Part shown: positions 6,241 to 57,622 of the stretch, one piece after another
How the letters are laid out: the number at the start of each line of letters is the position of its first letter
How positions within the stretch are numbered: position 1 is the first letter of the stretch
Origin: Epinephelus fuscoguttatus
Lineage: Eukaryota > Chordata > Actinopteri > Perciformes > Serranidae
Length of the DNA: 64,000 nucleotides
NCBI RefSeq assembly: GCF_011397635.1
Contig: NC_064770.1
Span: 33,380,598 to 33,444,597 of the forward strand
Direction of reading: 5' to 3'
The notes under the pieces: generated by a model
Database searches by the model: none
Seen by the model: the letters and a program-made list of their open reading frames with translations, nothing else
Told to the model about the DNA's origin: nothing
Position numbers and translations under genes: made by a program

Positions 6241-7483
6241 ATGATGTCTTGCATGTTTGGAGAAAAAGAGACGTCTTTGCTTGGTTGTCTTCTATGCGAC
6301 ATTCAGAACATTAATATAGCAGTAAACACCTATTTGCTACGTAAAGATATAGTGGGGTTATGGCGTCCTAAGCAGAGAATGAAGCCATGCTGCTTATGTG
6401 CATTTTGTGTTCCGAGCTTCTCTGTTCGATGTTGTAGTAAGCCAGTCCAGCCACGCCTGCGTATCACAGTGTTGCGAAAACGTATCACCCAGTTACCCTT
6501 TGCTAAACATTGTTAGCTCTGTCAGTACTGTTGCCCTTGTTCAGTGTTATTTATGGAGTTACCACTGTTAGCTGCTAGCCATTAGCTCAGCCACCTCTAT
6601 GTTTGGAACCATGTGCAGACAACTCATATGCTTTGAATTTAGCATGAAGCCCCATTAAATGTATGGAATGCAAATACTCACCTGAAGCAGAAAACTCAAA
6701 GAACTTGAGTAAATGTACTTAGTTACACTGTTTGCAAGTATCTGAAATGCCAGTTGTTGCTCTCAGCTCCCAGGATGTCACGCTAAATTAGACATTTGAT
6801 AAGAATTTTGTTTTTGTGTCTAGGGGGCAAAAACAGTCTGAGACAATCATTAAAACTGAACATTTTTAGAGAGGCGCATCAGTGCTATGTGATGATGTCC
6901 CAAACAGCAGCCAGCCAGACATGCAGCAGAAACATCCTAACAAAGGACCCTCTTGTTCCCAGCTGAATTCTTGAACATCATTTTCTGCATTTTCCTGCAA
7001 ATGACTCAATCTCCACGTCCCTCGCTTCTCATTCCGCCCAATTATCATTTTTCAAGCATGTCCCCTCGACCCACAGAGACACACTGTTTGGGGAGTTTCC
7101 AAATCTTGCCATGAAATCTGCATATATGTGTATGGATGGATGTGTGACGGGTTTCACAGTCAAAAAACACACACATACTATACACACATTCAAACTGCAC
7201 GGTAGATGAAAAGAAGTGGATATAAAAGAATAATGTGACTGATTTTGCTCTGCGAGGGAGACAGGAGACAGTTGAGAAGGATACAAGGCAGCATTGAGGA
7301 TTCTCTTTCTCTTATTCTTCCTGAATCGTCCCTTTTTCCCCCTTTTGCCTCTTGTTGCAGTCACAGCTGCAGCAGGGCTCAGCAACCCACAGCTTTTAGG
7401 GCTTGGTTGATGCAAATGTGTGTGTTGCTTATCAGTTTGCTATTGGCTGCTCAGTGCTTCTGTAGCCAACCCAGTTGCCAGAT

Positions 7484-8170
7484 AAAATGTTGGCATTGTA
7501 CGTTTCTGCAAACCCTGAATACTGTATGTTCCATTAAAATGTTATTATGTCGCGAATACGTTGAAACGTTATGTTTCAACAACACTGTGGTTAATGTTAG
7601 GTGAGGTTTAGGCACAAAAAATAATTTGTTACGGTTAGGAAAAGAGCATGTTTTGGCTTAAAATACCCTACTTTGGGGGCATAATCCCTGCTGAAAAAAA
7701 CAGCAATGTTGTTATAAAAAACAACCGCTTTTCATGCCACTATCCCAGCAGGAAACACAGCAATGGCTCTGTAACAAACAACCGCTTTTCATGCCACTAT
7801 CCCAGCAGGAAACTCAACAACTGCACGCTAAAGAACAACCGCTTTTCATGCCACTATCCCAACAGGAAACACAGCAACAGCTCTGTAACAAACAAGCGCT
7901 TTTCATGCCACTATCCCAGCTACCATCCCAACAGGAAAAACAGTAATGACTGAAAACAACCAATTTTCATAGCACTATCCCTGCTGGAAAAACAGCTATG
8001 GGTCACTAAAAAACACCCTCATTCGGGGAGGTGAAAAGCTGCTGGAAAGAAAGCCAGCGTTTGCTAAAAAACACCTTTGTTTGAGGGCTTAAAAGCCGAA
8101 GGAAATATAGCCACTGGTGCCTAAAGAACATGATTCAGTGCCTAAAAAGCTGCCTGAAATGCAGCAATGC
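7484..8170 (+). repeat. Dispersed element with a short 57-bp tandem repeat inside
   Basis: The segment GGCACAAAAAATAATTTG at about 7609, then the run to 7690, matches the region at 9979-10150 in order and spacing. It is followed by about four 57-bp units (ACCGCTTTTCATGCC recurs near 7724, 7781, 7838 and 7895), then diverged units resembling the 56-bp array (GGTCACTAAAAAACACC at about 8001). The frame through the units is open, but only because 57 is a multiple of three. Confidence 0.75.
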
Positions 8171-9266: not shown

Positions 9267-9978
9267 CTCCTCCCTGACCAGTAACTCAGAGACAAGGCGA
9301 CAAACACAAAAGGATAGGAACTTCGGTGGTATGAGCACAAAGGCAGGATTCACAGACGTTCAAATGGGGGACCTATTTAAATGTAACACAGCTGCATGAA
9401 TTTATTAAGTCAGACGGACAGAGCGAAAAGATCAGGAGTGTCCACTTTAAAGATTCCTTGACATTTTAATTGGGGATGTAACTCACATTTATCATTATTA
9501 GGGGATAACCTATAAATAATAGAAGCTCACTTACATACAGTTATTATTGCCTTTCATTACGTTAGGCTGCTTTTAAATTGGCGGGGTGGTTTGATGGTGT
9601 TCTTCAGCACGAATCCTTAGCAGTTCTAGTTGTGTGAGTCTATGGCTGACCTTTGACCTCGCTGTAGGGTAGGAAAATAAATGGGAATCCATCAGTATCT
9701 CATTATTATAAGACAGAGTTGATTACGTTTATAATAACTTAATAACTGTGGCCCACCGGATCCCTCTTCAAGGCTGACTGATCCACTTCAACGGGCAAAT
9801 ACTGACACACCTGCAGCTCTGTCCTGCACAGGTGCACGCAGAGACACACAGAGGGCAGAGCGAGTTTGTGAGTAAGAGAGGGATGTAAACTGCTTTCAAA
9901 CGATTCAGACTTTTGAGATTCTTACCTATCAGAGTCAGCAGAAATATGTTTGTCTAAAAAACAAATGCATCTCCAGGA

Positions 9979-10220
9979 AAAATGTTAGCATTGTTTCTGC
10001 AAATCAAGTTATCATATAGCAGGTAGATTAAAACTTTGGTTAATGTGTGGGAAGGTTAGGGCACAAAAATCATTTGGTTATGGTTAAAAAAAGAGAATTT
10101 TTGGCTGAAAATACCAGTTTTTTGGAAGGCATAATCCAGACAGAAAAAGCAGCAATGTCTCAATTAAAAAAACAAAACTTTTTGCACCACCATTCCTGCT
10201 GGAAACACAGTGAAGGGTCA
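9979..10220 (+). repeat. Second copy of the dispersed element, leading into the 56-bp array
   Basis: Collinear with 7484-7740: AAAATGTTAGCATTG, the GGCACAAAAATCATTTGG stretch, GGCATAATCCAGACAG and CACCATTCCTGCTGG follow in the same order. The first recognisable array unit begins at about 10210 with no break, so the array grew from inside this element. Confidence 0.7.
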
Positions 10221-13200
10221 CTAAGAAAAACCCACATTTGGGGGCTAAAAAGCATCAGGTAACACAGCGATGTGTCACTAAAAAACATCCATGTTTGGGG
10301 GCTAAAAAGCTGCAGCTAACACAGCAATGGGTCACTAAAAAACACCCACGTTTGGGGGCTAAAAAGCTGCAGGTAACACAGCGATGGGTCACAAAAAACA
10401 TCAACGTTTGGGGGCTAAAAAGCTGGTGGAAAAACAGCAATGAGTCACAAAAAACACCCACGTTTTGGGACTATAAAGCTGGTGGAAAAACAGGAATGGG
10501 TCACAAAAAACCCACGTTTTGGGACTATAAAGCTGGTGGAAAAACAGGAATGGGTCACAAAAAACACCCATGTTTGGGGGCAAATAGCTGGTGGAAAAAC
10601 AGCAATGAGCCACTAAAAACACCCACGTTTGGGGGCTATAAAGCTGGTGGAAAAACAGTGATGAGTCACAAAAAACCCACGTTTTGGGACTATAAAGCTG
10701 GTGGAAAAACAGCAATGAGTCACAAAAAACACCCACGTTTGGGGACTATAAAGCTGGTGGAAAAACAGTGACGTGCCACTAAAATCACCTATGTTTAAGG
10801 CTGACACGCTACAGATAAGACAGGGATGGAATCCTAAAAAACACCCACGTTTGGGGACTATAAAGCTGGTGGAAAAACAGCAATGAGTCAGAAAAAACAC
10901 CCACATTTGGGGGCTAAAAAGCTGGTGGAAAAACAGGAATGAGTCACAAAAAACACCCACGTTTTGGGACTATAAAGCTGGTGGAAAAACAGCAATGAGC
11001 CACTAAAAACACACATGTTTGGGGGCTATAAAGCTGGTGGAAAAACAGCAATGAGTCACAAAAAACACCCACGTTTGGGGACTACAAAGCTGGTGGAAAA
11101 ACAGTGATGAGTCACAAAAAACCCACGTTTGGGGACTATAAAGCTGGTGGAAAAACAGCAATGAGTCACAAAAAACACCCACGTTTGGGGACTATAAAAC
11201 TGGTGGAAAAACAGCGATGAGTCACAAAAAACACCCACGTTTGGGGACTATAAAGCTGGTGGAAAAACAGCGATGAGTCACAAAAAACACCCACGTTTGG
11301 GGACTATAAAGCTGGTGGAAAAACAGCAATGAGTCACAAAAAACACCCACGTTTGGGGACTATAAAGCTGGTGGAAAAACAGCGATGAGTCACAAAAAAC
11401 ACCCACGTTTGGGGACTATAAAGCTGGTGGAAAAACAGCGATGAGTCACAAAAAACACCCACGTTTGGGGGCTATAAAGCTGGTGGAAAAACAGCAATGA
11501 GTCACAAAAAACACCCACGTTTGGGGACTATAAAGCTGGTGGAAAAACAGCGATGAGTCACAAAAAACACCCACGTTTGGGGACTATAAAGCTGGTGGAA
11601 AAACAGCAATGAGCCACTAAAAACACCCACGTTTGGGGACTATAAAGCTGGTGGAAAAACAGCGATGAGTCACAAAAAACACCCACGTTTGGGGGCTATA
11701 AAGCTGGTGGAAAAACAGCGATGAGTCACAAAAAACACCCACGTTTGGGGGCTATAAAGCTGGTGGAAAAACAGCGATGAGTCATAAAAAAACCCCATGT
11801 TTGGGGGCTATAAAGCTGGTGGAAAAACAGTGATGAGTCATAAAAAAAACCCACGTTTGGGGACTATAAAGCTGGTGGAAAAACGGCAATGAGTCACAAA
11901 AAACACCCACGTTTGGGGACTATAAAGCTGGTGGAAAAACAGCGATGAGTCACAAAAAACACCCACGTTTGGGGACTATAAAGCTGGTGGAAAAACAGCG
12001 ATGAGTCACAAAAAACACCCACGTTTGGGGACTATAAAGCTGGTGGAAAAACAGCGATGAGTCACAAAAAACACCCACGTTTTGGGACTATAAAGCTGGT
12101 GGAAAAACAGCAATGAGTCACAAAAAACCCACGTTTGGGGACTATAAAGCTGGTGGAAAAACAGCAATGAGTCACAAAAAACCCACGTTTTGGGACTATA
12201 AAGCTGGTGGAAAAACAGCAATGAGTCACAAAAAACACCCATGTTTGGGGGCAAATAGCTGGTGGAAAAACAGCAATGAGCCACTAAAAACACCCACGTT
12301 TGGGGGCTATAAAGCTGGTGGAAAAACAGGAATGGGTCACAAAAAACCCACGTTTGGGACTATAAAGCTGGTGGAAAAACAGCAATGAGTCACAAAAAAC
12401 ACCCACGTTTGGGGGCTATAAAGCTGGTGGAAAAACAGCGATGAGTCACAAAAAACACCCACGTTTGGGGGCTATAAAGCTGGTGGAAAAACAGTGATGA
12501 GTCACAAAAAACACCCACGTTTGGGGACTATAAAGCTGGTGGAAAAACAGTGATGAGTCACAAAAAACCCACGTTTTGGGACTATAAAGCTGGTGGAAAA
12601 ACAGCAATGAGTCACAAAAAACACCCACGTTTGGGGACTATAAAGCTGGTGGAAAAACAGCAATGAGTCACAAAAAACCCACGTTTTGGGACTATAAAGC
12701 TGGTGGAAAAACAGCAATGAGTCACAAAAAACACCTACGTTTGGGGGCTATAAAGCTGGTGGAAAAACAGCAATGAGTCACAAAAAACACCTACGTTTGG
12801 GGACTATAAAGCTGGTGGAAAAACAGCAATGAGTCACAAAAAACACCTACGTTTGGGGGCTATAAAGCTGGTGGAAAAACAGCAATGAGTCACAAAAAAC
12901 CCACGTTTTGGGACTATAAAGCTGGTGGAAAAACAGCAATGAGTCACAAAAAACACCTACGTTTGGGGGCTATAAAGCTGGTGGAAAAACAGCAATGAGT
13001 CACAAAAAACCCACGTTTTGGGACTATAAAGCTGGTGGAAAAACAGCAATGAGTCACAAAAAACACCCACGTTTGGGGACTATAAAGCTGGTGGAAAAAC
13101 AGTGACGTGCCACTAAAATCACCTATGTTTAAGGCTGACACGCTACAGATAAGACAGGGATGGAATCCTAAAAAACACCCACGTTTGGGGACTATAAAGG

Positions 13201-16200
13201 GGGTGGAAAAACAGCGATGGCTCACAAAAAACACCCACGTTTGGGGACTATAAAGCTGGTGGAAAAACAGCAATGAGTCAGAAAAAACACCCACATTTGG
13301 GGGCTAAAAAGCTGGTGGAAAAACAGGAATGAGTCACAAAAAACACCCACGTTTTGGGACTATAAAGCTGGTGGAAAAACAGCAATGAGCCACTAAAAAC
13401 ACCCACGTTTTGGGACTATAAAGCTGGTGGAAAAACAGCAATGAGTCACAAAAAACACCCACGTTTGGGGACTATAAAGCTGGTGGAAAAACAGTGATGA
13501 GTCACAAAAAACACCCACGTTTGGGGGCTATAAAGCTGGTGGAAAAACAGCGATGAGTCATAAAAAAAACCCACGTTTGGGGGCTATAAAGCTGGTGGAA
13601 AAACAGTGATGAGTCACAAAAAACCCACGTTTGGGGACTATAAAGCTGGTGGAAAAACAGCAATGAGCCACTAAAAACACCCACGTTTGGGGGCTATAAA
13701 GCTGGTGGAAAAACAGCGATGAGCCACTAAAAACATCCACGTTTGGGGGCTAGAAAGCTGGTGTAAAAACAGTGATGAGTCACAAAAAACACCCACGTTT
13801 GGGGGCTATAAAGCTGGTGGAAAAACAGCAATGAGTCACAAAAAACACCCACGTTTGGGGACTATAAAGCTGGTGGAAAAACAGCAATGAGTCACAAAAA
13901 ACACCCACGTTTGGGGACTATAAAGCTGGTGGAAAAACAGCAATGAGTCACAAAAAACACCCACGTTTGGGGACTATAAAGCTGGTGGAAAAACAGCAAT
14001 GAGCCACTAAAAACACCCACGTTTGGGGACTATAAAGCTGGTGGAAAAACAGCAATGAGCCACTAAAAACACCCACGTTTGGGGGCTAAAAAGCTGGTGG
14101 AAAAACAGCGATGAATTCCTTAAAAAACACCCACATCTGGGGGCTATAAAGTTGGTGGAAAAAACAGTGACGTGGCACTAAAAACACCCACATTTAAGAC
14201 TATAAAGCTGGTGGAAAACAGGGATGGATTCCTAAAAAACACCCACGTTTGGGGACTATAAAGCTGGTGGAAAAACAGCAATGAGTCACAAAAAACACCC
14301 ACGTTTGGGGGCTATAAAGCTGGTGGAAAAACAGCGATGAGTCACAAAAAACACCCACGTTTTGGGACTATAAAGCTGGTGGAAAAACAGCAATGAGTCA
14401 CAAAAAACACCCACGTTTGGGGGCTATAAAGCTGGTGGAAAAACAGTGACGTGGCACTAAAAACACCCACATTTAAGACCGAAAAGCTGCAGCTAACACA
14501 GGGATGGATTCCTAAAAAACACCCACGTTTGGGGACTATAAAGCTGGTGGAAAAACAGCAATGAGTCACAAAAAACACCCACGTTTGGGGGCTATAAAGC
14601 TGGTGGAAAAACAGCAATGAGTCACAAAAAACCCACGTTTTGGGGACTATAAAGCTGGTGGAAAAACAGCAGGGATGGATCACAAAACACCCACGTTTGG
14701 GGACTATAAAGCTGGTGGAAAAACAGCAATCAGTCACAAAAAACACCCACGTTTGGGGACTATAAAGCTGCAGGTAACACAGCGTTGGGTCACAAAAAAC
14801 ACCCATGTTTGGGGACTATAAAGCTGGTGGAAAAACAGCGATCAGTCACAAAAAACACCCACGTTTGGGGACTATAAAGCTGGTGGAAAAACAGCAATGA
14901 GTCACAAAAAATACCCACGTTTGGGGGCTAAAAAGCTGCAGGTAGCACAGCGTTGGGTCACAAAAAACATCCTAATTTGGGGGCTAAAAAGTTGCAGGTA
15001 ACACAGCGGTGAATTCACAAAAAACCTCCATGTTTGGGGACTATAAAGCTGGTGGAATAACAGTGACGTGCCACTAAAAACACCCAAATTTAAGACCGAA
15101 AAGCTGCAGGTAACACAGGGATGGATTCCTAAAAAACACCCACATTTGGGGACTATAAAGCTGGTGGAAAAACAGCAATGAGCCACTAAAAACACCCACG
15201 TTTTGGGACTATAAAGCTGGTGGAAAAACAGCGATGAGCCACTAAAAACACCCACGTTTGGGGACTATAAAGCTGGTGGAAAAACAGCAATGAGTCACTA
15301 AAAACATCCACGTTTGGGGACTATAAAGCTGGTGGAAAAACAGCAATGAGTCACTAAAAACATCCACGTTTGGGGACTATAAAGCTGGTGGAAAAACAGT
15401 GATGAGTCACAAAAAACACCTACGTTTGGGGGCTATAAAGCTGGTGGAAAAACAGTGATGAGTCACAAAAAACACCTACGTTTGGGGGCTATAAAGCTGG
15501 TGGAAAAACAGTGATGAGTCACAAAAAACACCTACGTTTGGGGGCTATAAAGCTGGTGGAAAAACAGTGATGAGTCACAAAAAACACCTACGTTTGGGGG
15601 CTATAAAGCTGGTGGAAAAACAGCAATGAGTCACAAAAAACACCCACGTTTGGGGACTATAAAGCTGGTGGAAAAACAGCAATGAGTCACTAAAAACATC
15701 CACGTTTGGGGACTATAAAGCTGGTGGAAAAACAGCAATGAGTCACTAAAAACATCCACGTTTGGGGACTATAAAGCTGGTGGAAAAACAGCAATGAGTC
15801 ACAAAAAACACCCACGTTTGGGGGCTATAAAGCTGGTGGAAAAACAGCAATGAGTCACAAAAAACCCACGTTTTGGGACTATAAAGCTGGTGGAAAAACA
15901 GCAATGAGTCACAAAAAACACCTACGTTTGGGGGCTATAAAGCTGGTGGAAAAACAGCAATGAGTCACAAAAAACACCTACGTTTGGGGGCTATAAAGCT
16001 GGTGGAAAAACAGCAATGAGTCACAAAAAACACCCACGTTTGGGGACTATAAAGCTGGTGGAAAAACAGCAATGAGTCACTAAAAACATCCACGTTTGGG
16101 GACTATAAAGCTGGTGGAAAAACAGCAATGAGTCACAAAAAACACCCACGTTTGGGGGCTATAAAGCTGGTGGAAAAACAGCGATGAGTCACAAAAAACA

Positions 16201-17262
16201 CCCACGTTTGGGGGCTAAAAAGCTGCAGGTAACACAGCGATGAATTCCTTAAAAAACACCCACATCTGGGGGCTATAAAGTTGGTGGAAAAAACAGTGAC
16301 GTGGCACTAAAAACACCCACATTTAAGACCGAAAAGCTGCAGCTAACACAGGGATGGATTCCTAAAAAACACCCACGTTTGGGGACTATAAAGCTGGTGG
16401 AAAAACAGCAATGAGTCACAAAAAACACCCACGTTTGGGGACTATAAAGCTGGTGGAAAAACAGCAATGAGTCACAAAAAACACCCACGTTTGGGGACTA
16501 TAAAGCTGGTGGAAAAACAGTGATGAGTCACAAAAAACCCACGTTTGGGGACTATAAAGCTGGTGGAAAAACAGCAATGAGCCACTAAAAACACCCACGT
16601 TTGGGGACTATAAAGCTGGTGGAAAAACAGCGATGAGTCACAAAAAACACCCACGTTTGGGGACTATAAAGCTGGTGGAAAAACAGCAATGAGTCACTAA
16701 AAACATCCACGTTTGGGGACTATAAAGCTGGTGGAAAAACAGCAATGAGTCACAAAAAACACCCACGTTTGGGGACTATAAAGCTGGTGGAAAAACAGCA
16801 ATGAGTCACTAAAAACATCCACGTTTGGGGACTATAAAGCTGGTGGAAAAACAGCAATGAGTCACTAAAAACACCCACGTTTGGGGACTATAAAGCTGGT
16901 GGAAAAACAGCAATGAGTCACTAAAAACATCCACGTTTGGGGACTATAAAGCTGGTGGAAAAACAGCAATGAGTCACAAAAAACACCCACGTTTGGGGAC
17001 TATAAAGCTGGTGGAAAAACAGCAATGAGTCACAAAAAACACCCACGTTTGGGGACTATAAAGCTGGTGGAAAAACAGCAATGAGCCACTAAAAACATCC
17101 ACGTTTGGGGACTATAAAGCTGGTGGAAAAACAGCAATGAGTCACAAAAAACACCCACGTTTGGGGACTATAAAGCTGGTGGAAAAACAGCAATGAGCCA
17201 CTAAAAACACCCACGTTTGGGGACTATAAAGCTGGTGGAAACACAGCGATGAGTCCCAAGAA
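10215..17262 (+). repeat. ~7-kb tandem array of a 56-bp unit (about 125 copies)
   Basis: The consensus unit contains, in order, TGAGTCACAAAAAACACCC, ACGTTTGGGGACTATAAAGC and TGGTGGAAAAACAGC. Adjacent units differ by a few substitutions (TGAGCCA for TGAGTCA, GGGGGCT for GGGGACT). Some units are shortened by 2-3 bp (ACCCACGTTTTGGG form). The left edge units are the most diverged and the centre is most uniform. Open frames of up to ~150 aa on both strands repeat the unit in three frames (56 = 3x18+2) and are not genes. Not CRISPR: there are no unique spacers. Confidence 0.95.
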
Positions 17263-20200
17263 ACACAGGCGTCTTGCGAATGTGTCATGCCATTCATCAT
17301 TCCTTCCACCCACTGATGACAAAGTCAGCTCAAATATGTCACTGGAGAAATGTTGATTTGATATGTATGGAACATATTACAACATTTTCCTCTGACAACT
17401 GGACTGCTGAAACAAAACGATCAATTTTTGCATCTTTGCTACTTTGCAGAAGAATGCTCATCTCTTGCTCCATAACACACAATGTAAAACACTTAAATAT
17501 GGATTCTAGATTCCCTGCAGTGGAGATACTTTTTCCTCCTACTTAAACTTAAATCACACCATCAGCCACGTAACTAGATACAATATACACAACAACTTCA
17601 TGTAGTTTACAGGACACATGCACCAAGTAACGTACATGTAAAATTAAGGCTCTTTAAACATGGTTTTGAAATTAGTTGGGGTCAAGCTTACATTTTAATG
17701 TTAATAAATTGCAGCACATGAACCAAATGTGTTTCTGTCTGGCTGGTATTATATTCTCTGAATCCAGTGTGCCCTACAATTTCTGTTAAATTATTACAAG
17801 TTTGTACAAATGTGTTTACAGAGAGTGACATCATCTGGCACCAAAGATCAGCCAATACCAGCTTTTACACAGATTTTGTTTAAATCCAAAGCTCCATATT
17901 TATTGCTTTATTTTTGTTTAATCCTCTCAAAAACTGCGTTATCATGTGAGTATAATGACACGACAGGCACTTGGAAACCACATCCTGAGAAACATAGGAG
18001 TGCCTCATATTTAGTAGAAATGTCAGGTTAAGAGAGGGCGATGATGATGGGCCTAACAGTCACAGGACTGTGTGGCTTCTATTTTGATGCTGTCGACCCA
18101 GAGCCCGCTGACCTTTAACTGTCACCCCTGCATGTGTGTGTGCTTCACAACAAACTACATCATCTCAGCCATGACAGGACAAGTTTTTTAGTGCCATCTG
18201 TGTGTGTTTCTTCTCTAGGTTTAAAACCTCAGTCCTTTATAATCTTTGAATTTTGTCAGTGCTGCAATGTATTTACTGGAACTAAAACAGTTTTAATTTG
18301 CAGACTGAGCCTCAAAGGTTGCACACATTGTGTTTAGACAGTGAAGTCAAATCACCAATTCAGTAAGAATCAAAGCAGATCCATTATTGCTAGGAGTTTT
18401 CCTTTTTCAAGTGATTTTATTACTTTTATATTCACTGTAAATTTCTCATGACATCACAAGTAACTATTTCAATCAAAGTTTATCCATGCAAATAATCTAA
18501 TCAAATAATTTAGATTTTTGCACAGATTTGAATGGGCAAATGTTTTTTTAATCAGCATAAAAATAATTTAATAAAGTAATTAAGATGAATTAATAAAAAT
18601 TGTAAACTTGTATTGATTATTATTTCTCAAATCTACCAAAAGGCTGGAAGTCCCGCATCATTTCACTAAAACCATATCATTTAATGTTTTATATATAATT
18701 GGAAAATTATGTTTTTTTCTTTTAAAAACTGTAAAGCTACTCAAGAAAAAAACAACTGTAATTATTGAGGCACAATTATACATTTTATAATAAGCAAGAC
18801 AAGACTTTTCAATTCTTTATTTCCCTGGAATAAATGTATTATTTATATTATTTATAGGCCTAATAGAAAAAAATGTAGGCTGGAAAAAAATAATCCGATC
18901 TTAAATAACAGGTGCATTTATAATGTTTTGGCTCATAAATTATTTTTTTATATATAGATAAAAACTGTCAATATTTGCAGCGATGAGGTATTAAAGCAGC
19001 AGAATTATCTTAGGCTATATACATAAAGCCTACATTACGCAGTTATTTTTCCGAACGTTTCATCTATCTATTTTTGGCATAATTAAATTTCTAGTCTGCA
19101 GACTACAGAGGTCATCCATCATCATCCCGAGGGCAACGTTTTCGGACAGAGGTCTCTAGGTTAGTATTTTATTAAACAAGAATAAATGATGTCGCTTTTC
19201 TCCAGGCAGATAATTTGGAAGCTTTCTCACTGATACTTAAAATAAATAAAAAGTTTACTAAAACATAAAACTCAAATCATTATTTGAGCAACCAGCACAT
19301 TACTCCACAACATCTTGTGGCCACAGAACCGTGTAAGATTAATCTGCATTTTTCGGTCTCACCTAAATGTCACTCACTCATGGAGCGATGTATTTGTTGG
19401 GCCTGTTCACTTCCCCTCACCTCCGTTATTTGCGCACAAACACACACACGCCAAAACAAGCACTCACGTCAAACCGAGGCCGGGCCGCAAATCCTCCGCT
19501 GCACAGCGGGAGAGAAATCCCCGGAGTGTCTCTGTGAAGATCCCCGGGTTTAAAGCTCCAGGAGCCGGACGGTCCCACCGCAGCCTCCCGGGGGCCGGAG
19601 TCGCCGCGCTCCTGGAGCATTTTACTCTTTATATGTGAGAGTTTGTTGAGAGGCGGACAAAGAGTGGCGGTGGAGGGGAAGACACAAGCTTTTTCCTTCT
19701 TTTCTTTTCTTTTTTCATATGCACAGAACTGCTTTTTGTTCCCCCCGCTTTTTTTCATTAAAGGGAGAAGGGGGTGCTCGTTTTTGATCACATGATTCCA
19801 ATTCACCTGAGATAAAACAAAGGACGCAAAGAAAGGAGGGAGAGAGGCAGAGAATCAGACAGAGAGATGCTCTCATGGTTAGGATTCCCTTATCACGGTC
19901 AACATTTAAAAAAAAAAAAAAAAGTGGTGATTTTTGGATTGGGTGCCAGTGTGTCGCATGGCGGGGATACAAGGGGTCATTGTTGGGGAAGAACAGCGCT
20001 GGTGTTTGTATCCGTGCGGCCCATGATGTCCCCTCTCCTCTCTCCTTTCTGCGTTAGACTGTTTGGTCTCTAACGCGCGCTCTGTTGCGCTCAGACAGAG
20101 GCGCTGATGCAATTATAACAGTCACGCGTGGACATAAAGGGGCGCACTGTCGGATGCCACCACGTAATCTTTTTAAGGGCCTTTGAATGTTATCTACACC

Positions 20201-21894: not shown

Positions 21895-22132
21895 CTTCAA
21901 CCAATCAGAGCTCTCTTCTCCAGCGTCCGCACTGCTCCTTTAAGACTCGTCCTCCCCAGCATCTTTTTTTTCTATCTGCCTCATACAAGGAGCTCTTTAA
22001 GCCCCGGCACCGACACACAGAGCAGGCATTCATACTCGGGCAGCGCGAGCGAGGGGGCTCGGGAGCGAGCGTCACTTTGGAAACTCACGGATTCTCGTGC
22101 TAAACCGGCGACCTCCTTTTCTCATTACTGAA
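21895..22132 (+). promoter_or_regulatory. sox10: Probable sox10 promoter and non-coding first exon
   Basis: A CCAATCAG (CCAAT box) at about 21900 is followed by a CpG-richer stretch and a donor-like GTAAGG at 22133. This is consistent with a short non-coding first exon ending at 22132 and an intron of ~3.5 kb. Non-coding first exons are known for Sox10 in other vertebrates. No TATA box is evident and the start site is not defined by sequence. Confidence 0.4.
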
Positions 22133-25100
22133 GTAAGGCGCTTAGCATTTCCAACTCTTTTCCTCTCTGCTGCTGCTGCTGGGGGCTGCTCTGACTCTGC
22201 GGTTTGATTGTTTCTTCTAGTCGGAATCGGAGAGGAGAACCCCAGACTCTGAATTACAGATGTGATTTTAGAATCAAATAATCTTAACATTGCATTGATG
22301 ATTATTAACAACTGTTTGCGAGCTCTGGCGTTGGTTTCAGACTGATCCAAAATGACTGATGACTTGTTCGTTCTTTAATAATTTAGCAAGTTATTTCAGT
22401 CACTCGGGTCCTTCTGTAGAACCACACGAGAAACGTGTCGTTAAAAGATGTTTTTTCATATTTTACGCACAATGTCCGACATTTTTTGGCGATGATTATC
22501 ATAAAAAATAATTTTCCATATCGTGATAATTCTTGTAATGATAGCCTTGTTACTGTGTCAGTGTTACAAGTGCTCCTGTTTTCAGTTATCCATCATTTGT
22601 TTGGACAGTTTTTCTTGACAAGAATTTTAAAAGTCAAGCTTTTTCTTTTTAACTTGGAGACATTAACAACCCTTTTCGCACTAAGAAAAGCATAATGCTC
22701 AAACATTTTTTTAAAGAAGGGGAAAGTTTTGAGAAGTTGTAAGAGACTGAGAAACAAATAAGCCTTATCCTCGACACGGACTTTGGTTCAGATGGAAAAA
22801 AAAGCAGTGTCTGGACTATTTATTTACATATTTTGTGCATCTTTGGCTGGTTTGTTCTATATTTACTGTTGTTCTTGGGGGCTGTGCGGACTGGATGCTA
22901 CCAGATATATGAGCTATTGTTAATCTAATCGCAGAAACAAGCAAATTAAGGCCAACTCTCTGGCAACTCAAGCGGCGATAATGAGCTCACATAGCCGGAA
23001 TTCATTACGCACAGTAAATGTGCTCAGTGATGTAAATTAACAACAAGCGTGATTTGAGGGGTGTTTCAAAAACAATTTATATGTAACATATTATCAGATA
23101 ATAAAATCAAATGACAACTGATGAGCGTGCCCAGCGGATAGACGACTCTCTGTTGAGTCCGTGATTCGCTTGTTTGTTCCTAATTTGAGGTGCAATCTGT
23201 TAAATAAATAACATACTTTATAATCAGTGTGGTCAGTGACTAAAGGGAATTAAAAGCACTTTAAGATCATTGCTCTTGTCTTTCTTTGATAAGATCGACA
23301 TGATAAGCAAACATTGGCAACGTGTGCGCAATGGCGCGTCTGGTGTCTTTACGCACGATGTTTACGCATTGTGTCTGTGCAGCAGGGACACTGTGGAGAC
23401 AGTCTGTGAAGTGGCCTTGCAGACCAGGTGGCAGGCGAATATCATTATCAATGCGCCTCGGACAGATGGTGAAGCTTTACGCACCTCTGCTGGAACTGGA
23501 TCCGATTCTTGACATTCAGTCTGACGTTAATTAAACATTGTCAGAATACGTCAAACGTTTATTAAGAGTCACACGACACCATGTGTAATTTACCTCTGGT
23601 AGGCCTATATATTGTCAGAATCATTATATAAACTCACTTACAGCAGCCTATATGCATAGTTTGTTTCTAGGCTAAACGTTAAAACAGCGCGGAACATTTT
23701 CCCCAAATATAAAGGTGAGGTAACCTGAGTGTTAAGTGGGTATATCCCCCCCTACTTAACCCACACATGAACACACAGACTGTAAAACTGACATGCTGTT
23801 TCATAATGTCACTGGACGTGAGCGAGATCGCTAATTTTCCTGCAACACGACACCGGGGCAGAAAACAAACCAACGCGCTGTGCGTTGCTGGTTCACAGGA
23901 AGTTCGCTGATTTCGGACGTAAAGTTCGAGGCGGGCGTGTTGATTTAATAGACAAAACAAGGACACATTTTGCTCCCGCCGATAGACCTGCCCCTGTTTG
24001 ACAAACAGACTGTGTCTAATTCACACACGCGGACCGTACCGACGCGCACGCACACACGAGGTTTATATTTCCAGCGCCAGGCCGTGTTTATCCAAGAAGT
24101 GCGGGGTATAAATCCAACGTCTGTGCTGCTGCGGCCTCGTATCATTCCAACACTCTCTCTCCGGGGAGCTTGGAATAACTGCTAAACCTTTAACAGTAGG
24201 AAAGGGGTGGAGGGGTGGGGGTGCAGGCCTGCAGAGGCGCGGCGCTATGGAGCTGGACCTCTGCAAACATGTATAGCCTAGACTTATTTTAAGACTGAAC
24301 TTTATACACTTTAGGAATAAAAGAAACCTCTGTGAATTTTAATTCTGAAAAAAAAATCCGAACTGTTATACCCAGTCTTGACCCATTTGATAAAACTGAT
24401 TTAATGTTCCAGGTATGTGAAAATAAAAATTGAATAGAAGCAATGAACACATGTGAGACTATTTTAGCCCATGCACCTTTGTTTCTCACATAGTTTTCAG
24501 CGAATATTAAGTCCTTTATATGTTGTCCTACATGAAAATGTCTCCAATACTCACGTGAAGTTTCAACATAAATGTAGATTTCAGATAAAAGAAGCAGAGG
24601 ATTTTTATTCTGGCGAAATTTGAGACATTTACACCATAAATTTGATGCAAACTTGCGCACAAATTCGCAGAAATAAATTCACATGAACGCACGAAATGAA
24701 ACTTCTCGTCGTACTCATACTCGTCTGTGCACACTGTAACTTTTGTCTAACAGGTTTTTGCCTGATGAAGGTCTAGTCACCGGAACATTGCAGTTGAATT
24801 AAAGTCATTATTTTTGCAAGTTAGAGAGTGTGCAGGAGTCTTTTCCACAAGTTTTGTTCTTCTCCTCCTTCTTATACGCACCTGTTTGGAAATAAATGTG
24901 TTTAGTATTCCTTTGTTGTGTGTGGCAATATCGTATCATCACACAGTGCCAAGTATCAATTTTTTAATTATATAAATTATTAATATTACAAATACAAATT
25001 AAACTTTAGGTAGCCTAGAATAATAAAATCAAATGCTTTTCCAGCCCACTATACATTTTGCGGCAAAAAAATAAAATAGCTGAAGTGAGCTGAAAACTCC

Positions 25101-26060: not shown

Positions 26061-26503
26061 ATGTCCAGAGAGGAGCAGAGCTTGTCGGAGGTTGAGCTCA
26101 GCCCGGGGATGTCGGACGACAGTCGCTCTCTGTCGCCGGGTCATTCCTCCGGTGCGACTGGCGGGGGGGACTCGCCTCTCCACGGGCAGCAGCAGCCGCA
26201 GCTGCCGCAGCTGACGAGTCTGGACGACTCGACGGCGGGCTGCTCGTCCATCAAATCCGACGATGAGGACGACCGCTTCCCGGCAGGAATCCGTGATGCA
26301 GTCAGCCAGGTGCTCAACTGCTACGACTGGACCCTCGTGCCCATGCCCGTGCGCGTGAACACCGGAAACAAGAACAAGCCGCACGTGAAGAGGCCCATGA
26401 ACGCCTTCATGGTGTGGGCGCAGGCGGCGCGGAGGAAACTGGCCGACCAACACCCGCACCTGCACAACGCGGAGCTCAGCAAGACCCTGGGGAAGCTCTG
26501 GAG
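26061..26503 (+). CDS. sox10: sox10 coding exon 1: N terminus, DIM domain and first part of HMG box
   Basis: Encodes residues 1-147 plus two bases of Arg148. The HMG box is split after GKLWR, the conserved SoxE intron position, by a donor GTGAGG at 26504. A TG-rich acceptor ending TAG at 26053 could make this exon begin at 26054, seven bases before the ATG. That would place the rest of the 5' UTR in upstream exons. The acceptor's pyrimidine tract is weak, so the 5' border is uncertain while the coding part is not. Confidence 0.95.
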
Positions 26504-29500
26504 GTGAGGAGGCCATTTCATGTGGATAGTTCAGCGCTGTCAGATCACTGTCATCATGCTAACACAAAAATGTGTAGACAGTAAAAGAAGTAACTACCTA
26601 CTGCTCTTTGTTTTTACTAAATAAAAAGGTTGAGGCTAAATCTGCAGATAAGGGACAGGGTTTGTTTTCAGGGTGGGGGTTTGGGGAAATAGCTCCAGAT
26701 TAGCACAGGGCAAAGGTCAGTGTCATGGTCAAGCCTGAGGGTTTCAAGAATAAATGCAACTGGGTAAAGCAATCTCAATTTCAATTTCAATCTCCTGTAA
26801 TCTTCTATTAATTTTACATTTTTGTGCACCATCAATCTTTTACCTAAGGCAATAGGAGTAGATTTTGGGGAGGACATGGGGGACAAGTCCTTCTCAATAT
26901 TTAGAACATGTGCATTTGTCCCTGCTAATAAAAACATACAAGTAGCAGAAGATTTTTATTTGAATTAAAGACACTTCCACCATAAATCGATGCAAGGCAA
27001 AAAATTATGCAGGAAAATTTTCCCCAAATGCAGGAAATTAAGAGTTTGATGTTCAAAATATCCTGGGGGAGGACTGCAAACCCCCGTTTCAAATGTACCT
27101 TCCTTCCAAGTGTTGACACAAAACCTACGCCCTTGCTTCAGGCCAACTTGAACAAGCACACTCACGTAGCTGCCGATAGACAAGTGGTGTAAGATGCTGC
27201 GTACTTTTACAGATAAAACTGTGAAAGCTCACTGTAGGTTATTGTGTAAACACTACTTCTTTATTATTCTTTTTAATCAATGATATTTTTTCTTATTATA
27301 AAATTAGGATAATTATGCAACAAGCCTTTGCCCCTTTTCTCTGGACCATTTAGTTTAAGTCATGTGCTTTATTTTCTTATGAACAAAAGGCACAGTTGAG
27401 AAAATAAAGCAAGACAACATGCCCCCACCTGAGCTGATGTGTGGTATTATATTTTCTGCTAAAACTATTTGCTGTAATTGAGTTTTACTGTATATGAACA
27501 TGATTTTTAGTAGACATCGTTGCCCTAAGACACTGCCACAGTACCTCAGTAGACATTTTTCCGCACAGCTCACCAGCTGAGAAGTGTATATATGTGTTTA
27601 CTGTGAGCTTGTCACGATCACATGTTCCTGAATCCAGGCTAATTTTATAGACTGGCCATGTACCTGGAGTAAATGGCTCCTGAGGGAAACGGAGGGTGTT
27701 TTCACAAGCTTTCGGCTCACGTTTGAAATGCAGGTTTTTAACCTTTAAACGTATGGCTTTGCAAGATTCTTTTTAACTGTGTCTGAGTGCTCGAGCGTCA
27801 ACACCGCTGCCTCACGATCACCTGCAGTTCTTTACGGTCATAGTTCTGCCAGACTACACATCCAGTGTCCGTGTTCTCACACAAAACACTCGCTACTTGC
27901 TGAAAAGAAGGTCAGAAAAGTTAAATTCATTAACGTTGTGTGGACTGAGCATTTATTAGATAAAGACTTGACCCTGGGCTCAGGCATGATTGGTTAATTG
28001 GCCCAGAAACATGAAGAACAGGGAGGTTGAGGAAGGTCAGGGGTTTCTCATGCCATTCCTGCCAGCAGTAGTAATAAGGAGCTCGGTTTCATGTTTGCAG
28101 ACAGGATGCATCTTTGGCCTGTTTTATTTCATTACTGTCTAGCAGCAGTCAAATGCCCCTGGCAGGCATTACAATGAATGCACATACACAAAATAAAGCA
28201 CTATGTATCAATATGCGCTAAAATGGACTAAACTTATTTGTGGAAAACGTGTTGCCAAGCATATCTGTGAAAATAATTTTGACCCATATACTGTATGTTG
28301 ATATTCTTTAAAGCCTGTTATTCCAGATCCTTCACTTCCTCCAGAACTCTTAAAGAAATCGTCTTAAGGTGCATTTCATGTTACCATTTACATATACTTT
28401 AAATGTTTTCAGATTCCCTACACCAAAAGAAAAGTTCCCAACATTTCCTCACTTTTGGATGACCTTGTAGAATATATATCGCAGCTAAAAGCCAACATTG
28501 TGGCTTAATTCTTATTGAGTGCTGGGACTTCTCTTCTTCATACTTTAAACAACCCAATCTACCTTCCATCTTCCCTTTTTATCTAAGGCTTCTTAATGAG
28601 AGTGACAAGCGACCCTTCATCGAGGAGGCAGAGAGGCTGCGGAAGCAGCACAAGAAGGACTACCCTGACTACAAATACCAGCCAAGACGCCGCAAGAGTG
28701 GAAAGCCGGGTTCTGGATCAGGAAGTGAGGCCGATGGCCATTCGGAGGGTGAGGTCACCCACAGCCAACCTCACTACAAGGGCCTCCAGCTGGATGTGGC
28801 CCTGAGTGGGGGAGCCGGGTCACCTCTGGCAGATGGGCACCACCCTCTTGCTGCAGGTGGGCTGCAGGCTCCCTGCCACGACGTTACTGATAGCATCCCT
28901 GTCGCACTGTTAGACCAGTGTAGATAAAACTAGACAGTGTGGCACACAGAGAATTGCTTGAGTGTGCCAAGAAAATTACTGTAACCACATGTTTTCTTGT
29001 GTCTTTACAGGTCAGAGTCACAGTCCTCCTACACCTCCTACCACTCCCAAGACCGAGCCTCAGTCTGGGAAGGCAGGGGATGGAAAGCGAGAGGGTGTTG
29101 GGAATGGGGGCTCCCGTGGTGCAATGGGAGCAGAGGGGAGCTCAGGTGCTCCGGGATCTGGCAAACCTCACATCGACTTTGGTAATGTGGACATTGGTGA
29201 GATGAGCCACGAGGTGATGGCAAACATGGAGTCTTTTGATGTCAATGAGTTTGACCAGTACCTTCCACCTAATGGACACCCAGGGGTTGGGCAGAGTGCT
29301 GGGGCAGGAGCAGCTGCAACGACTTCGCCTGTCTCTCCGTACACCTACGGCATATCCTCAGCTCTGGCAGCAGCCAGTGGACACTCCGCAGCCTGGCTCT
29401 CTAAGCAGCAGCAGCCGCTGCAACATCACGGCCCCCCTCTGGGCTCAGACCCTTCCAAGGCCCAGATCAAGAGTGAGGCTGGAGGTGCTGGGGGTCACTT

Positions 29501-29801
29501 CACAGAGGGAGCCTCAGTAGGTTCCCATGTCACCTACGCTCCCCTCAGCCTCCCTCACTACAGCTCTGCCTTCCCCTCACTAGCCTCCAGGGCTCAGTTT
29601 GCTGAATATGCTGACCACCAGGCCTCAGGGTCATACTACGCCCACTCCAGTCAGGCCTCGGGGCTGTACTCTGCCTTCTCTTACATGGGGCCCTCCCAGA
29701 GGCCCCTGTACACTGCCATCACTGACCCAGCCAGCGTACCGCAGTCACACAGCCCCACACACTGGGAACAACCCATCTACACGACACTGTCGCGGCCATG
29801 A
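26061..29801 (+). CDS. sox10: SRY-box transcription factor Sox10 (three coding exons)
   Basis: SoxE transcription factor that specifies neural crest, pigment cell, glial and inner-ear fates; nuclear, binds DNA through an HMG box. Coding exons are 26061-26503, 28588-28856 and 29011-29801. They join in phase (AG|G, then G|GT) with GT-AG borders and give 500 aa, against 466 in human. Seen: acidic N terminus, dimerisation (DIM) domain at about residues 67-100, HMG box at about 106-178 ([16 protein letters not shown], then [18 protein letters not shown]), Sox10-type [12 protein letters not shown]2 region with [11 protein letters not shown] and [11 protein letters not shown], and C terminus ending [13 protein letters not shown]. 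That tail and the [15 protein letters not shown] stretch fit Sox10 rather than Sox8 or Sox9, and the polr2f-micall1-gga1 neighbours agree. The ATG at 26061 is chosen because it begins the family's [11 protein letters not shown] opening. Possible sumoylation motifs IKSD and IKSE are present. Teleosts can carry two sox10 copies, and which copy this is cannot be told here. Confidence 0.96.
26504..28587 (+). other. sox10: sox10 intron within the HMG box
   Basis: Intron at the conserved SoxE HMG position, 2.08 kb. I see no repeat element or open frame of interest in it. Confidence 0.8.
28588..28856 (+). CDS. sox10: sox10 coding exon 2: second part of HMG box and basic tail
   Basis: Follows an acceptor ending TAAG at 28587 and starts with the base completing Arg148. 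It carries HMG helix 3 and the basic C-terminal extension (YKYQPRRRK), then a Gly/Ser-rich linker. It ends with one base of a Gly codon before a GTGGG donor at 28857. In this linker the sequence is less like mammalian Sox10 than in the box. Confidence 0.94.
29011..29801 (+). CDS. sox10: sox10 coding exon 3: K2 region and C-terminal transactivation domain
   Basis: Begins after TCTTTACAG at 29010 and runs to TGA at 29799-29801. It holds the Pro/Thr-rich [11 protein letters not shown] motif, the K2 region, a possible sumoylation motif IKSE and the Ser/Tyr-rich transactivation tail. The open frame extends upstream into the intron as far as 28962, but that part lacks family similarity. Confidence 0.95.
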
Positions 29802-48621: not shown

Positions 48622-51600
48622 CTGTCGAGCGACACATAAGGCTAAAACTTTCTGCAAACCAAGTGTTAGTTTACACCAGAGTTATTTATGTAATCCCTCA
48701 TGACTGAATCTTGTGATGAGGGATAAACAAACACTACGTGTGTTTTAAAGGATCAGCTTAAAAGAATACTTCACCCCCTGAAAATTACCATTTATATATC
48801 AGTTACCTATCCCATGTTACGTTGAATTCAAGAAAACCATTTTCTTTGCATGCCTCGACTGTGAATGAAGAATCCAAAACGAACAAAGTCATAGGCGACA
48901 GCAAAACTATATCAACATCCTTTCACAAACTCCCACACAACTCCTGCAGTATAATCTAATCAGTATATAAGTCTCATTTATCCAGTCGTCTGCTGATTAA
49001 TTCCCAGACAGACAGCCCTTTCTGACGGGAAGCTGAACAGGAAGTTAAACTATCCTATGCTCTCTTCAAAGCCAGACACCATTGACAAAAAGCGTAATTT
49101 TACCTTGCTGAACACAGGAGCTGCTGATCTACTGCTGCCTCGATCTGTTGTTTGTTTGTGTTACCGTGTGACTTTGGTGACTCTAAAGTAACCCTTTAAA
49201 ACACAAAACTTACACAACAACTCAAACAAACTAACTGATGGAGGCAGTGGTAGACCAGCAGCTCCTGTGTTCAGTAAAGTTAAATGACTGTTTTTGTCAA
49301 TGGAGTCTGACTTTGAAGAGAGAATAGGTAAGTTTCACTTCCTGTTCAGTCCCCTGTCAGAAAGGGCTGTCTGCTTGGGAAGTACTGAACATACAACTGG
49401 TTAAATGAGACTTTGATTATACTGCATGAGTTGTGTGTTTTGCCGTGTCAAATGCCGACCCCTATGTCTTCAGTTCATCAAGAATTTTGTCTGTTTTCAG
49501 ATTCATGTTCACCGTGGAGGCATGTGAGAAAAGCAAAGTTTTCTTTACGAATTCAGTCTAACCAGGGTGAGTAATTTTCTTGAGCTCTAAATCCAGACAT
49601 TGTACCTTCCTCTTGATGAGTGGAAAGCCATGTCCGGGGGCAGGGCCCCGTGTCGATGGGAGGACCTGACAGCTCTTTGATTTGAGCATCGCAGGTTTCC
49701 GATCAAAGGGATTCTCTCTGCAGGCCAGCTAGACATGGAGAGAAAATGAAGAATTGTGGGGCAGTTAAAACCAAATATGATCCTCTTGCAGGAGAAAATG
49801 TTCACATTAGATTTGATAGTCATCAATACCTCTCTTCATACCTTACTTAGAGATGAAGTGAACTGACCATATTCATTTGCCTCCGTCAAGGGAGCAGATG
49901 TGATAGCAGGCACAGAAACACTCCTGGGTAAAATGTGGCTCTGTGGCTCTCTCTCTGTATGTGAAATGGCACACAGCCCTGCTGCTGCTTCTTCTGTATT
50001 TGAAATGGCACACAGCCCTGCCGCTGCTGCTGCTGCTGCTGCTGCTTCTGTATCTACAGTGGCACACAGAATTGCTGCTGCTTCCTCTGTACCTGAAGTG
50101 GCACACGGCCCTGCTGCTGCTTCTTCTCTATCTGAAATGGCACACAGCCCTGCTGCCTCTTCTGTATATACAGTGGCACACAGAATTGCCGCTGCTTCCT
50201 CTGTACCTGAAGTGGCACACAGCCGTGCTGCCTCCTCTGTATCTAAAGTGGCATGCAGCCCTGCTGCTTCTTCTGTACCTAAAGTGGCACACGGCCCTGC
50301 TGCTGCTTCTTCTCTATCTGAAATGGCACACAGCCCTGCTGCTGCTTCTTCTGTATTTGAAATGGCACACAGCCCTGCCGCTGCTGCTGCTGCTGCTGCT
50401 GCTTCTGTATCTACAGTGGCACACAGAATTGCTGCTGCTTCCTCTGTACCTGAAGTGGCACACGGCCCTGCTGCTGCTTCTTCTCTATCTGAAATGGCAC
50501 ACAGCCCTGCTGCCTCTTCTGTATATACAGTGGCACACAGAATTGCCGCTGCTTCCTCTGTACCTGAAGTGGCACACAGCCGTGCTGCCTCCTCTGTATC
50601 TAAAGTGGCATGCAGCCCTGCTGCTTCTTCTGTACCTAAAGTGGCACACAGCCCTGCTGCTGCTTCTGTACCTGAAGTGGCACACAGCCGTGCTGCCTCC
50701 TCTGTATCTAAATTGGCATGCAGCCCTGCTGCTGCTGCTGCTGCTGTGTCTGTCACATCTGGGAGTGAACCTGCTTTGTTTTCAGTTTTATCCAAATCTG
50801 ATACAACACAAGTTTCTTTCGCTGGTTCACTTGAAGCTCCAACAGTCTCTTCAGGTGTACATTCAATGGCAGCATATCCAGCACAAACTACAGCAACTGT
50901 GTCCCCAATCCCTTCACTGACAGCTGCAGGTTCAGGTTCAGGTTCAGGTTCAGTGATCTTCTCCAGAGCCTCCTCATTCACCACCTCTGCAAATGGATTG
51001 GGAGGACGAACTCTGGGTCGAGGGCATGAGCTTCGCTGCTTAGGGATAGATTTGTATCGAGGAATGAGTAGAGGAGATTCAATTGGAGGCAGTTGTGTCC
51101 AGGGTCCAGGATGGACGATGGATAACCAAGGATGGTTGGTTTGCACCCTGGGGCTATCCCTGGTCGGGCTGGTGCTGCAAGAGGAAAGACAAGACGTGTT
51201 TTAAGACATGACTCCACAAGTGAGGAAGAACTTCTGGGGAAATCAGTGCTTATTATCATTATGGTAAATACAAAAACTCCTTTTATGTGATGCTTAAGAT
51301 TTTACGAAGATTTAGATTTTATGTTGCCACAACTTTATCTTTAAATTTTTTCTCATAATTTGTTTTCCCTTTTACAAGATTAAAATCTTAATATAACTGC
51401 GCTAATTATTGGCAGTACTTAAAGCAATAGTTCACCCTCCAAATTACCATTTGTTTATCGATAATCATCCGTGTTGCCTTGAATTTGTGAAGAAAACTTT
51501 GGTTTTCTCACACACCTCTGCGGTGAATGAAGAATCAAGATACTGAGAGTTCAAGTTTAACAACAAAACTGTATCAAAACATCTGTTTAGAAACTCTCAC

Positions 51601-56929: not shown

Positions 56930-57290
56930 ATCTTGTGTGAGATTTGAGATATAGACTGGCTGAACATGGCACTTAATTCACTTTGAGTAAAGGAGATCAA
57001 ATAAAGCTGGGCAGGTTTTGCTTTGAGGAGGAAACAGGAAACGAGCACCTACCACCCATGCAACTACTTTTTTTCTCAGAAACCTGCGGCCAGACTCGTG
57101 CATTGTCGATTGGGTGAAACAGCAGGAAGGAAGTTGTATTTCTCCCTGTGAGGTTGCTCTACCAAATAATAACCAAGGTGCCCGCGCGTGTAAAGCGACT
57201 TCACATTGCTCCAGTGTTCCCAGCCACAACATAAGTGTCAATGGTTTCCCTCACTCACTACACAATGACACTTCCCAGCACAAACCAGCA

Positions 57291-57622
57291 GAGAGCTTCT
57301 GAATGAGGCGACGTGTCGTCAAACACAGACATCTGCAGAGATCCGATGGCTCCTGGTCGATTTAATATAATGGGTGTAAACTTTAAATCAAATCCCGTTA
57401 CTTGCTGTGTAGTCCATGTTGTGGTGGTTGTGCTCCATATTCAGTGAAGTGCACAAGAGAGCTTCTGAATGAGGCGACGTGTCGTCAAACACAGACATCT
57501 GCAGAGATCCGATGGCTCCTGGTCGATTTAATATAATGGGTGTAAACTTTAAATCAAATCCCGTTACTTGCTGTGTAGTCCATGTTGTGGTGGTTGTGCT
57601 CCATATTCAGCGAAGTGCACAA
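57291..57622. repeat. Near-identical 166-bp tandem duplication
   Basis: Unit 57291-57456 is repeated at 57457-57622 with, as far as I can see, one difference (CAGTGAAG against CAGCGAAG). It lies between the divergent micall1 and gga1 genes. Each copy holds a minus-strand 16-codon frame starting MEHNHHNMDYTA. A CTCF-core-like CCACTGGAGGGC follows at 57629-57640. Confidence 0.9.

What the first reader, a model, noticed from the sequence alone, without database searches (positions are those of the whole stretch)
10215..17262. 7-kb satellite carrying an AP-1 consensus and a TATAAA in most units, 5 kb upstream of the sox10 promoter
Seen: the usual 56-bp unit contains TGAGTCA, the AP-1/TRE consensus, plus CTATAAAGC, so ACTATAAA or GCTATAAA recurs at a fixed distance. 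By hand I count about 85 TGAGTCA in 7 kb; many of the rest are TGAGCCA. Known: AP-1 factors bind TGA(G/C)TCA. Inferred: the array could act as a dense AP-1 sink or enhancer, or give pervasive transcription from many TATA-like sites, near a neural-crest master gene. The motif may equally be an accident of one founding unit.
Basis: partly seen in the sequence, partly recalled or inferred. Interest (0 to 1): 0.72.

Follow-up and report, generated by a model that had tools for sequence, protein, structure and literature searches.

The report
Transposon-borne repeat array near sox10
A 7-kb run of 126 copies of a 56-base repeat, apparently grown inside an old jumping element upstream of the sox10 gene, carries a stress-factor (AP-1) site and a TATA box in most copies; both look like chance changes in one local version of a widespread repeat, and no sign of selection on them was found.

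Summary
Window 10196-17270 is a head-to-tail array of 126 full ~56-bp units. TGAGTCA occurs in 84 of 126, TGAGCCA in 14 and TATAAA in 107.

The array is the internal minisatellite of a terminal-inverted-repeat (MITE-like) element, about 9962-17406, of a family found on many contigs of the same genome. The family unit usually reads TGGGTC(A/G)...CTAAAAAG. In 659 units from 37 other loci AP-1 appears 13 times, TATAAA 15 times, both together once. Genome-wide, the AP-1+TATA pattern matches 78 times: 74 in this array, one in another family copy, three without visible family resemblance. Old-background units of the array carry AP-1 in 0 of 13, the others in 84 of 113. So the pair is local, and AP-1 is derived.

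AP-1 letters are no better conserved than the rest of the unit (ranks 30 and 33 of 56). A genome-wide sink is implausible (about 129,000 sites extrapolated). Enhancer or promoter-array roles are untested. The nearest precedent, MORC3-restricted human tandem repeats (PMC13373173, passages and one section), mostly showed no effect on nearby genes.

Verdict: real, local, probably neutral; a good natural test case.

The parts
10196..17270 (+). 56-bp minisatellite array, 126 full units and a partial one; TGAGTCA in 84, TATAAA in 107
9962..10195 (+). left terminal inverted repeat (aligned part 9970-10011; outermost bases extrapolated and poorly matched) and leader of the element that carries the array
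   Evidence: aligns to the family TIR with score 46 against a maximum of 30 in 500 shuffles; the BLAST scan at E 0.01 did not list it; leader matches the 7.6-kb copy and other loci
17271..17406 (+). tail and right terminal inverted repeat (17372-17406)
   Evidence: TIR score 40 against a shuffle maximum of 30, not listed by BLAST; tail matches other loci
7467..8111 (+). second, older-looking copy of the same element in the same orientation (TIR 7467-7522, leader, 57-bp repeats, a unit with TGGGTCA); no right TIR found
21901..22133 (+). inferred sox10 promoter and exon 1 (CCAAT, TTTAAG, donor-like site)
   Evidence: sequence only; inference
26061..29801 (+). sox10 coding region (three coding exons inferred from open frames)
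   Evidence: Pfam Sox_N 2.8e-33 and HMG_box 7e-15 in the first frame, HMG_box 2.3e-5 (25.2 bits, cut-off 25.4) in the second, no family in the third; ATG

Best explanation
A TIR (MITE-like) transposon with an internal 56-57-bp tandem repeat inserted upstream of sox10. Unequal exchange or replication slippage then expanded its internal repeat to 126 units. One sub-lineage of units was amplified and homogenised: it had TGAGTCA, one G to A change from the family form TGGGTCA, and CTATAAAG, one A to T change from CTAAAAAG. The TATA change may be the older, since 8 of 13 old-background units have TATAAA but none has AP-1. The AP-1 and TATA sites are passengers of that founder. Most likely the array is kept in closed chromatin and has little or no effect on sox10. 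Shown here: the dispersed family, TIR-like ends, AP-1 as a derived state, the near-private AP-1+TATA pair and the lack of extra conservation. Inferred: the mechanism of expansion, the chromatin state and the lack of effect.
For: Family on many contigs. TIR hits in 35 of 38 fetched stretches and, by pairwise alignment, at both ends of this copy. Flank-duplication signal of about 7-8 bp in 11 copies. Other loci: AP-1 13 of 659 units (8 of 37 loci), TATAAA 15 of 659 (13 of 37 loci), both 1. AP-1+TATA pattern genome-wide: 78 matches, 74 in this array, 1 in another family copy, 3 without visible family resemblance; reversed control 10 and 10. A 25-mer with AP-1: 46 of 46 genome-wide hits in this array. 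TGGGTCA in the 8.0-kb copy; AP-1 in 0 of 13 old-background and 84 of 113 other units. AP-1 7-mer intact in 84 of 125, rank 30 of 56; rank 33 of 56 in derived units. A few other arrays are homogenised for other variants (within-locus identity L021 0.93, L014 0.89, L017 0.87, this one 0.85; between loci 0.65). With founders drawn at the locus-weighted rate, at least one of 28 arrays has AP-1 with probability 0.62.
Against: No other array examined has both motifs in more than one unit, and this one lies upstream of a developmental master gene. The same lottery estimate for both motifs, taken as independent, is 0.04. In shuffled 56-mers of the unit's composition AP-1 appears in 0.44% and TATAAA in 4.5%. 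TATA and the initiator-like CA sit at 31 bp; shuffled units give 30-31 bp in 2.4%. Four of 32 panel motifs occur in the unit against a mean of 1.1 in shuffles, P about 0.026 (recalled panel, two patterns miswritten). Lack of extra conservation within a homogenised array is a weak test of selection.
Confidence: 0.75

Rival explanations
1. Latent AP-1 enhancer: a homotypic cluster like the MORC3-restricted human tandem repeats, normally closed, which opens when AP-1 is high or its silencing fails and then raises sox10.
For: 84 AP-1 sites in 7 kb exceeds the motif numbers in PMC13373173, where MORC3-restricted tandem repeats (units 20-192 bp) carry SPI, AP-1 or SP/KLF clusters of up to 61 motifs (passages and section 13).
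Against: In that paper only two such repeats, both SPI-type, affected neighbouring genes, and of about 1000 human SPI clusters only about 50 were accessible and PU.1-bound without MORC3. The AP-1 clusters there come from a sequence model trained on accessibility. No extra AP-1 conservation here.
Confidence: 0.13
2. Tandem promoter array: each unit is a small promoter, with AP-1 ahead of a TATA box and an initiator 31 bp downstream, giving repeat RNA in the sox10 direction.
For: TATA to BBCABW-type CA at 31 bp, 102 occurrences among 107 TATAAA; all units in one direction, the same as sox10.
Against: The fixed spacing follows from tandem copying, so it is one coincidence, not 102. The initiator pattern is loose and recalled. 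No transcript data.
Confidence: 0.07
3. AP-1 sink: the array titrates Jun/Fos.
For: 84 sites in 7.1 kb against 7 in 56.9 kb elsewhere in the window.
Against: About 129,000 sites extrapolated genome-wide; the array adds under 0.1%. In the loci and patterns examined, AP-1-bearing units of this family outside the array are few (13 of 659 units).
Confidence: 0.02

Closest known systems
MITE-borne satellite repeats (Xenopus miDNA4 and Xstir; passages of the review PMC9659126)
   Same: A tandem unit inside a nonautonomous TIR element is dispersed with the element and locally amplified and homogenised.
   Different: Different host, and the unit letters were not compared; here one array became an AP-1/TATA variant near a developmental gene. 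Nonautonomy was not tested here.
Tetris / TIR-220 of Drosophila virilis (passages of PMC4079207)
   Same: Internal tandem repeats of a TIR-bearing transposon seed longer satellite-like arrays.
   Different: Tetris repeats are about 220 bp and lie within the TIRs; here 56-57-bp repeats lie between the TIRs.
MORC3-restricted tandem repeats / MORC3-repressed elements in human monocytes (PMC13373173; passages and section 13)
   Same: Minisatellite-sized tandem repeats with large homotypic clusters of one factor's site, AP-1 among them.
   Different: Those were found by binding and accessibility; here only sequence is available, and the two repeats with gene effects there are SPI/PU.1 types.

Membership tests
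MITE-borne minisatellite | terminal inverted repeats around the tandem array | tested here: met
   both ends of this copy align to the family TIR above 500 shuffles, though BLAST at E 0.01 listed only the 7.47-kb end in the window and the outermost 14 bases match poorly (7 and 10 of 14); family: hits in 35 of 38 fetched stretches
MITE-borne minisatellite | same tandem unit at dispersed loci within the same element | tested here: met
MITE-borne minisatellite | target-site duplication | tested here: inconclusive
   family signal at 7-8 bp: identity 0.584 over 11 of 19 end pairs against a mispaired maximum of 0.455 in 500 (pairs with poor ends dropped); not resolved for the sox10 copy
MITE-borne minisatellite | no transposase of its own | not tested
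   fetched copies were not searched for transposase genes
hAT superfamily | 8-bp target duplication and CA-type termini (recalled) | tested here: inconclusive
   CAG...CTG-like ends and a 7-8-bp signal; no transposase tied to it
MORC3-restricted tandem repeat | tandem repeat with a large homotypic motif cluster | tested here: met
   TGAGTCA in 84 of 126 units
MORC3-restricted tandem repeat | MORC3 binding and gain of accessibility on MORC3 loss | not testable with these tools
   needs chromatin data
AP-1 enhancer of sox10 | AP-1 occupancy, accessibility and effect on sox10 | not testable with these tools
   needs chromatin and deletion data

The most novel reading that the evidence does not exclude
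A transposon-borne minisatellite has by chance assembled a natural AP-1-responsive promoter array (AP-1, TATA, initiator repeated every 56 bp, reading towards sox10). It is silent in normal tissue but fires on wounding, stress or loss of silencing, giving repeat RNA and altered sox10 in neural-crest derivatives.
Probability: 0.08. Interest if true: 0.75.

Novelty: new member of a known kind. Interest (0 to 1): 0.33.

Why it matters
The locus is a clean natural case of how tandem amplification turns a one-base change into a dense transcription-factor cluster. The same family offers sister arrays with little or no AP-1 in the same genome as built-in controls, so the question whether a chance homotypic cluster gains regulatory effect can be tested directly.

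Tried and rejected
Relatives in IMG/VR and GTDB: three viral scans and two genome scans gave one 18-base match, whose surroundings show no repeat. A 16-letter string of the family unit was not found in the held papers; sox10 + minisatellite + teleost gave no paper. Higher-order repeats: no strong period at lags 1-69; the longest exact duplication is 205 bp. Coding: one open frame of the sister copy (7639-7953) had no Pfam match; array frames were not scanned. Global AP-1 sink: rejected on numbers. One search looked for element ends with wrong offsets for the fetched copies and was redone. One search looked for inverted repeats inside each flank on its own and found none; it does not test the two ends against each other. 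In the motif panel two of 32 patterns were miswritten. Not reached because the genome server did not answer: genome-wide counts of TGAGTCAC...CTAAAAAG, of TGGGTCAC...CTAAAAAG and of the TIR.

Full report
What is there. Window 10196-17270 holds 126 full units and one partial unit of a ~56-bp head-to-tail repeat. TGAGTCA is in 84 of 126 units, TGAGCCA in 14, TGGGTCA in 7, TATAAA in 107; 78 units have both AP-1 and TATAAA. There are 63 distinct unit sequences, the commonest 17 times; exact duplications run up to 205 bp and no strong higher-order period shows at lags 1-69, as expected of a minisatellite shuffled by unequal exchange or slippage (inference).

What carries it. Leader, tail and ends of the array match other places in the genome. 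Aligned copies share a terminal inverted repeat, seen; BLAST with its consensus gave 62 hits, in 35 of 38 fetched stretches plus one in the window, at 7470. BLAST did not list the two ends of the sox10 copy at E 0.01. Pairwise alignment places them at 9970-10011 and, inverted, 17372-17406, with scores 46 and 40 against a maximum of 30 in 500 shuffles; their outermost 14 bases match poorly (7 and 10 of 14). Of 19 copies with two ends, I kept 11 with fair ends: flanks match at 7-8 bp (identity 0.584 at 7 bp; mispaired mean 0.369, maximum 0.455 in 500). At 8 bp, 7 of the 11 match in 5 or more letters, 4 do not, and two of the 11 share one left flank sequence. This fits a TIR element of hAT-like or P-like kind; the label is recalled, the superfamily is not settled, and the sox10 copy's own duplication is not resolved. 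A second copy, 7467 to about 8111, lies 2.5 kb upstream in the same orientation; no right TIR was found for it.

The family. The window lies in an unnamed 1.047-Gb genome of 26 contigs; a two-unit query matched many contigs (182 matches, the sox10 array included, a lower bound and not all listed). I fetched 38 stretches picked from the best matches, so they lean towards the sox10 variant; 37 hold units, L047 none. In 659 units, TGAGTCA occurs 13 times (8 of 37 loci), TATAAA 15 times (13 of 37 loci), both once. The majority unit there reads TGGGTCgC...CTAAAAAG, lower case where no letter passes half. Of 27 other loci with at least 8 units, one, L016, has an AP-1 consensus, with the exact 7-mer in 3 of 25 units. 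Genome-wide, a 25-mer with AP-1 had 46 hits, each in the sox10 array. AP-1 followed at 18-24 bp by CTATAAAG had 78 hits: 74 in this array, one in the family copy L020 on the same contig, and three that by eye show no family resemblance; the reversed-pattern control gave 10 and 10.

Direction of change. The 8.0-kb copy has a unit with TGGGTCA and no TATAAA. The four left-edge units have TGGGTCA twice, AGGGTCA and TGTGTCA, each with CTAAAAAG. The 13 old-background units (C at unit position 4) have AP-1 in 0 and TATAAA in 8; the 113 others have AP-1 in 84 and TATAAA in 99 (Fisher P 1.5e-7 and 0.027). So AP-1 is one G to A change from the common form and rose with the amplified lineage; TATAAA may be older within the array or have spread by exchange.

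Selection? The AP-1 7-mer is intact in 84 of 125 units, rank 30 of 56; CTATAAA in 106, rank 14. Among derived units the AP-1 columns average 6.7 non-consensus letters against 5.95 overall, rank 33 of 56. No extra constraint on AP-1 is seen, though homogenisation makes this test weak. Few arrays are homogenised (within-locus identity L021 0.93, L014 0.89, L017 0.87, sox10 0.85, L010 0.81; between loci 0.65). With founders drawn at locus-weighted rates, at least one of 28 arrays would carry AP-1 with probability 0.62, TATAAA with 0.70, both with 0.04 if independent. AP-1 alone is unsurprising on that estimate; a shuffled 56-mer holds it in only 0.44%, but the family form is one step away. The pair is somewhat unusual, though chosen after the fact.

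Possible function. TATAAA is followed at 31 bp by an initiator-like CA in 102 places; shuffled units give 30-31 bp in 2.4% and 28-33 bp in 6.9%. The initiator and AP-1 patterns are recalled. The array adds 84 sites to about 129,000 extrapolated genome-wide from 7 in 56.9 kb, so a sink is implausible. In PMC13373173 (passages and section 13) MORC3-restricted human tandem repeats carry SPI, AP-1 or SP/KLF clusters; only the IFNB1 and TWIST2 repeats, both SPI, acted on neighbouring genes, and most large SPI clusters were closed without MORC3's help. That sets a low prior for an effect on sox10 and names a mechanism to test.

Setting. sox10 is on the + strand, ATG 26061, 8,791 bp past the array. 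A first exon near 22.0 kb, and so the 'about 5 kb' distance, is inferred from sequence alone. CpG observed/expected is 0.44 in the array, 0.40 to its left and 0.72 to its right.

Known kin. Tandem repeats born in transposons are well documented: PMC9659126 (passages) lists MITE-derived satellites including one inside a Xenopus MITE; PMC4079207 (passages) describes Tetris. I did not find this repeat in print in my searches, which cover open-licence papers only; other papers in those lists were seen as listings only.

Noticed in passing
49836-51200 (- strand): A 454-aa open frame rich in an in-frame tandem repeat (39-bp and 357-bp periods); with the LIM-like stretch in the frame at 52452-53135 (weak match to PDB 2co8_A, NEDD9-interacting protein with calponin homology and LIM domains, E 0.0098) it may be a MICAL-like gene next to sox10 with a coding minisatellite.
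   Followed up: partly
54930-55829: Another minisatellite, 32-bp type, about 29 degenerate copies; not compared with the sox10 array unit beyond reading it.
   Followed up: no
57290-57622: Two 166-bp copies 99% alike in tandem, probably a recent duplication.
   Followed up: no
L017 1231-4900; L021 176-2393; L014 2164-4074: Other loci of the same family with long homogenised arrays of different variants (about 65, 39 and 33 copies); L021 units are 0.93 identical on average.
   Followed up: partly
L020 1993-2050: The only unit with both TGAGTCA and TATAAA among 659 outside the array, on the same contig about 4.4 Mb away; possibly kin to the founder of the sox10 array.
   Followed up: partly
10196-17270 (- strand): Read on the minus strand, the consensus unit ends GCTGTTTTTCCACCAG, which looks like a 3' splice site; CAGGTAA, 5'-splice-site-like, occurs 6 times on the plus strand. 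Effect unknown.
   Followed up: no
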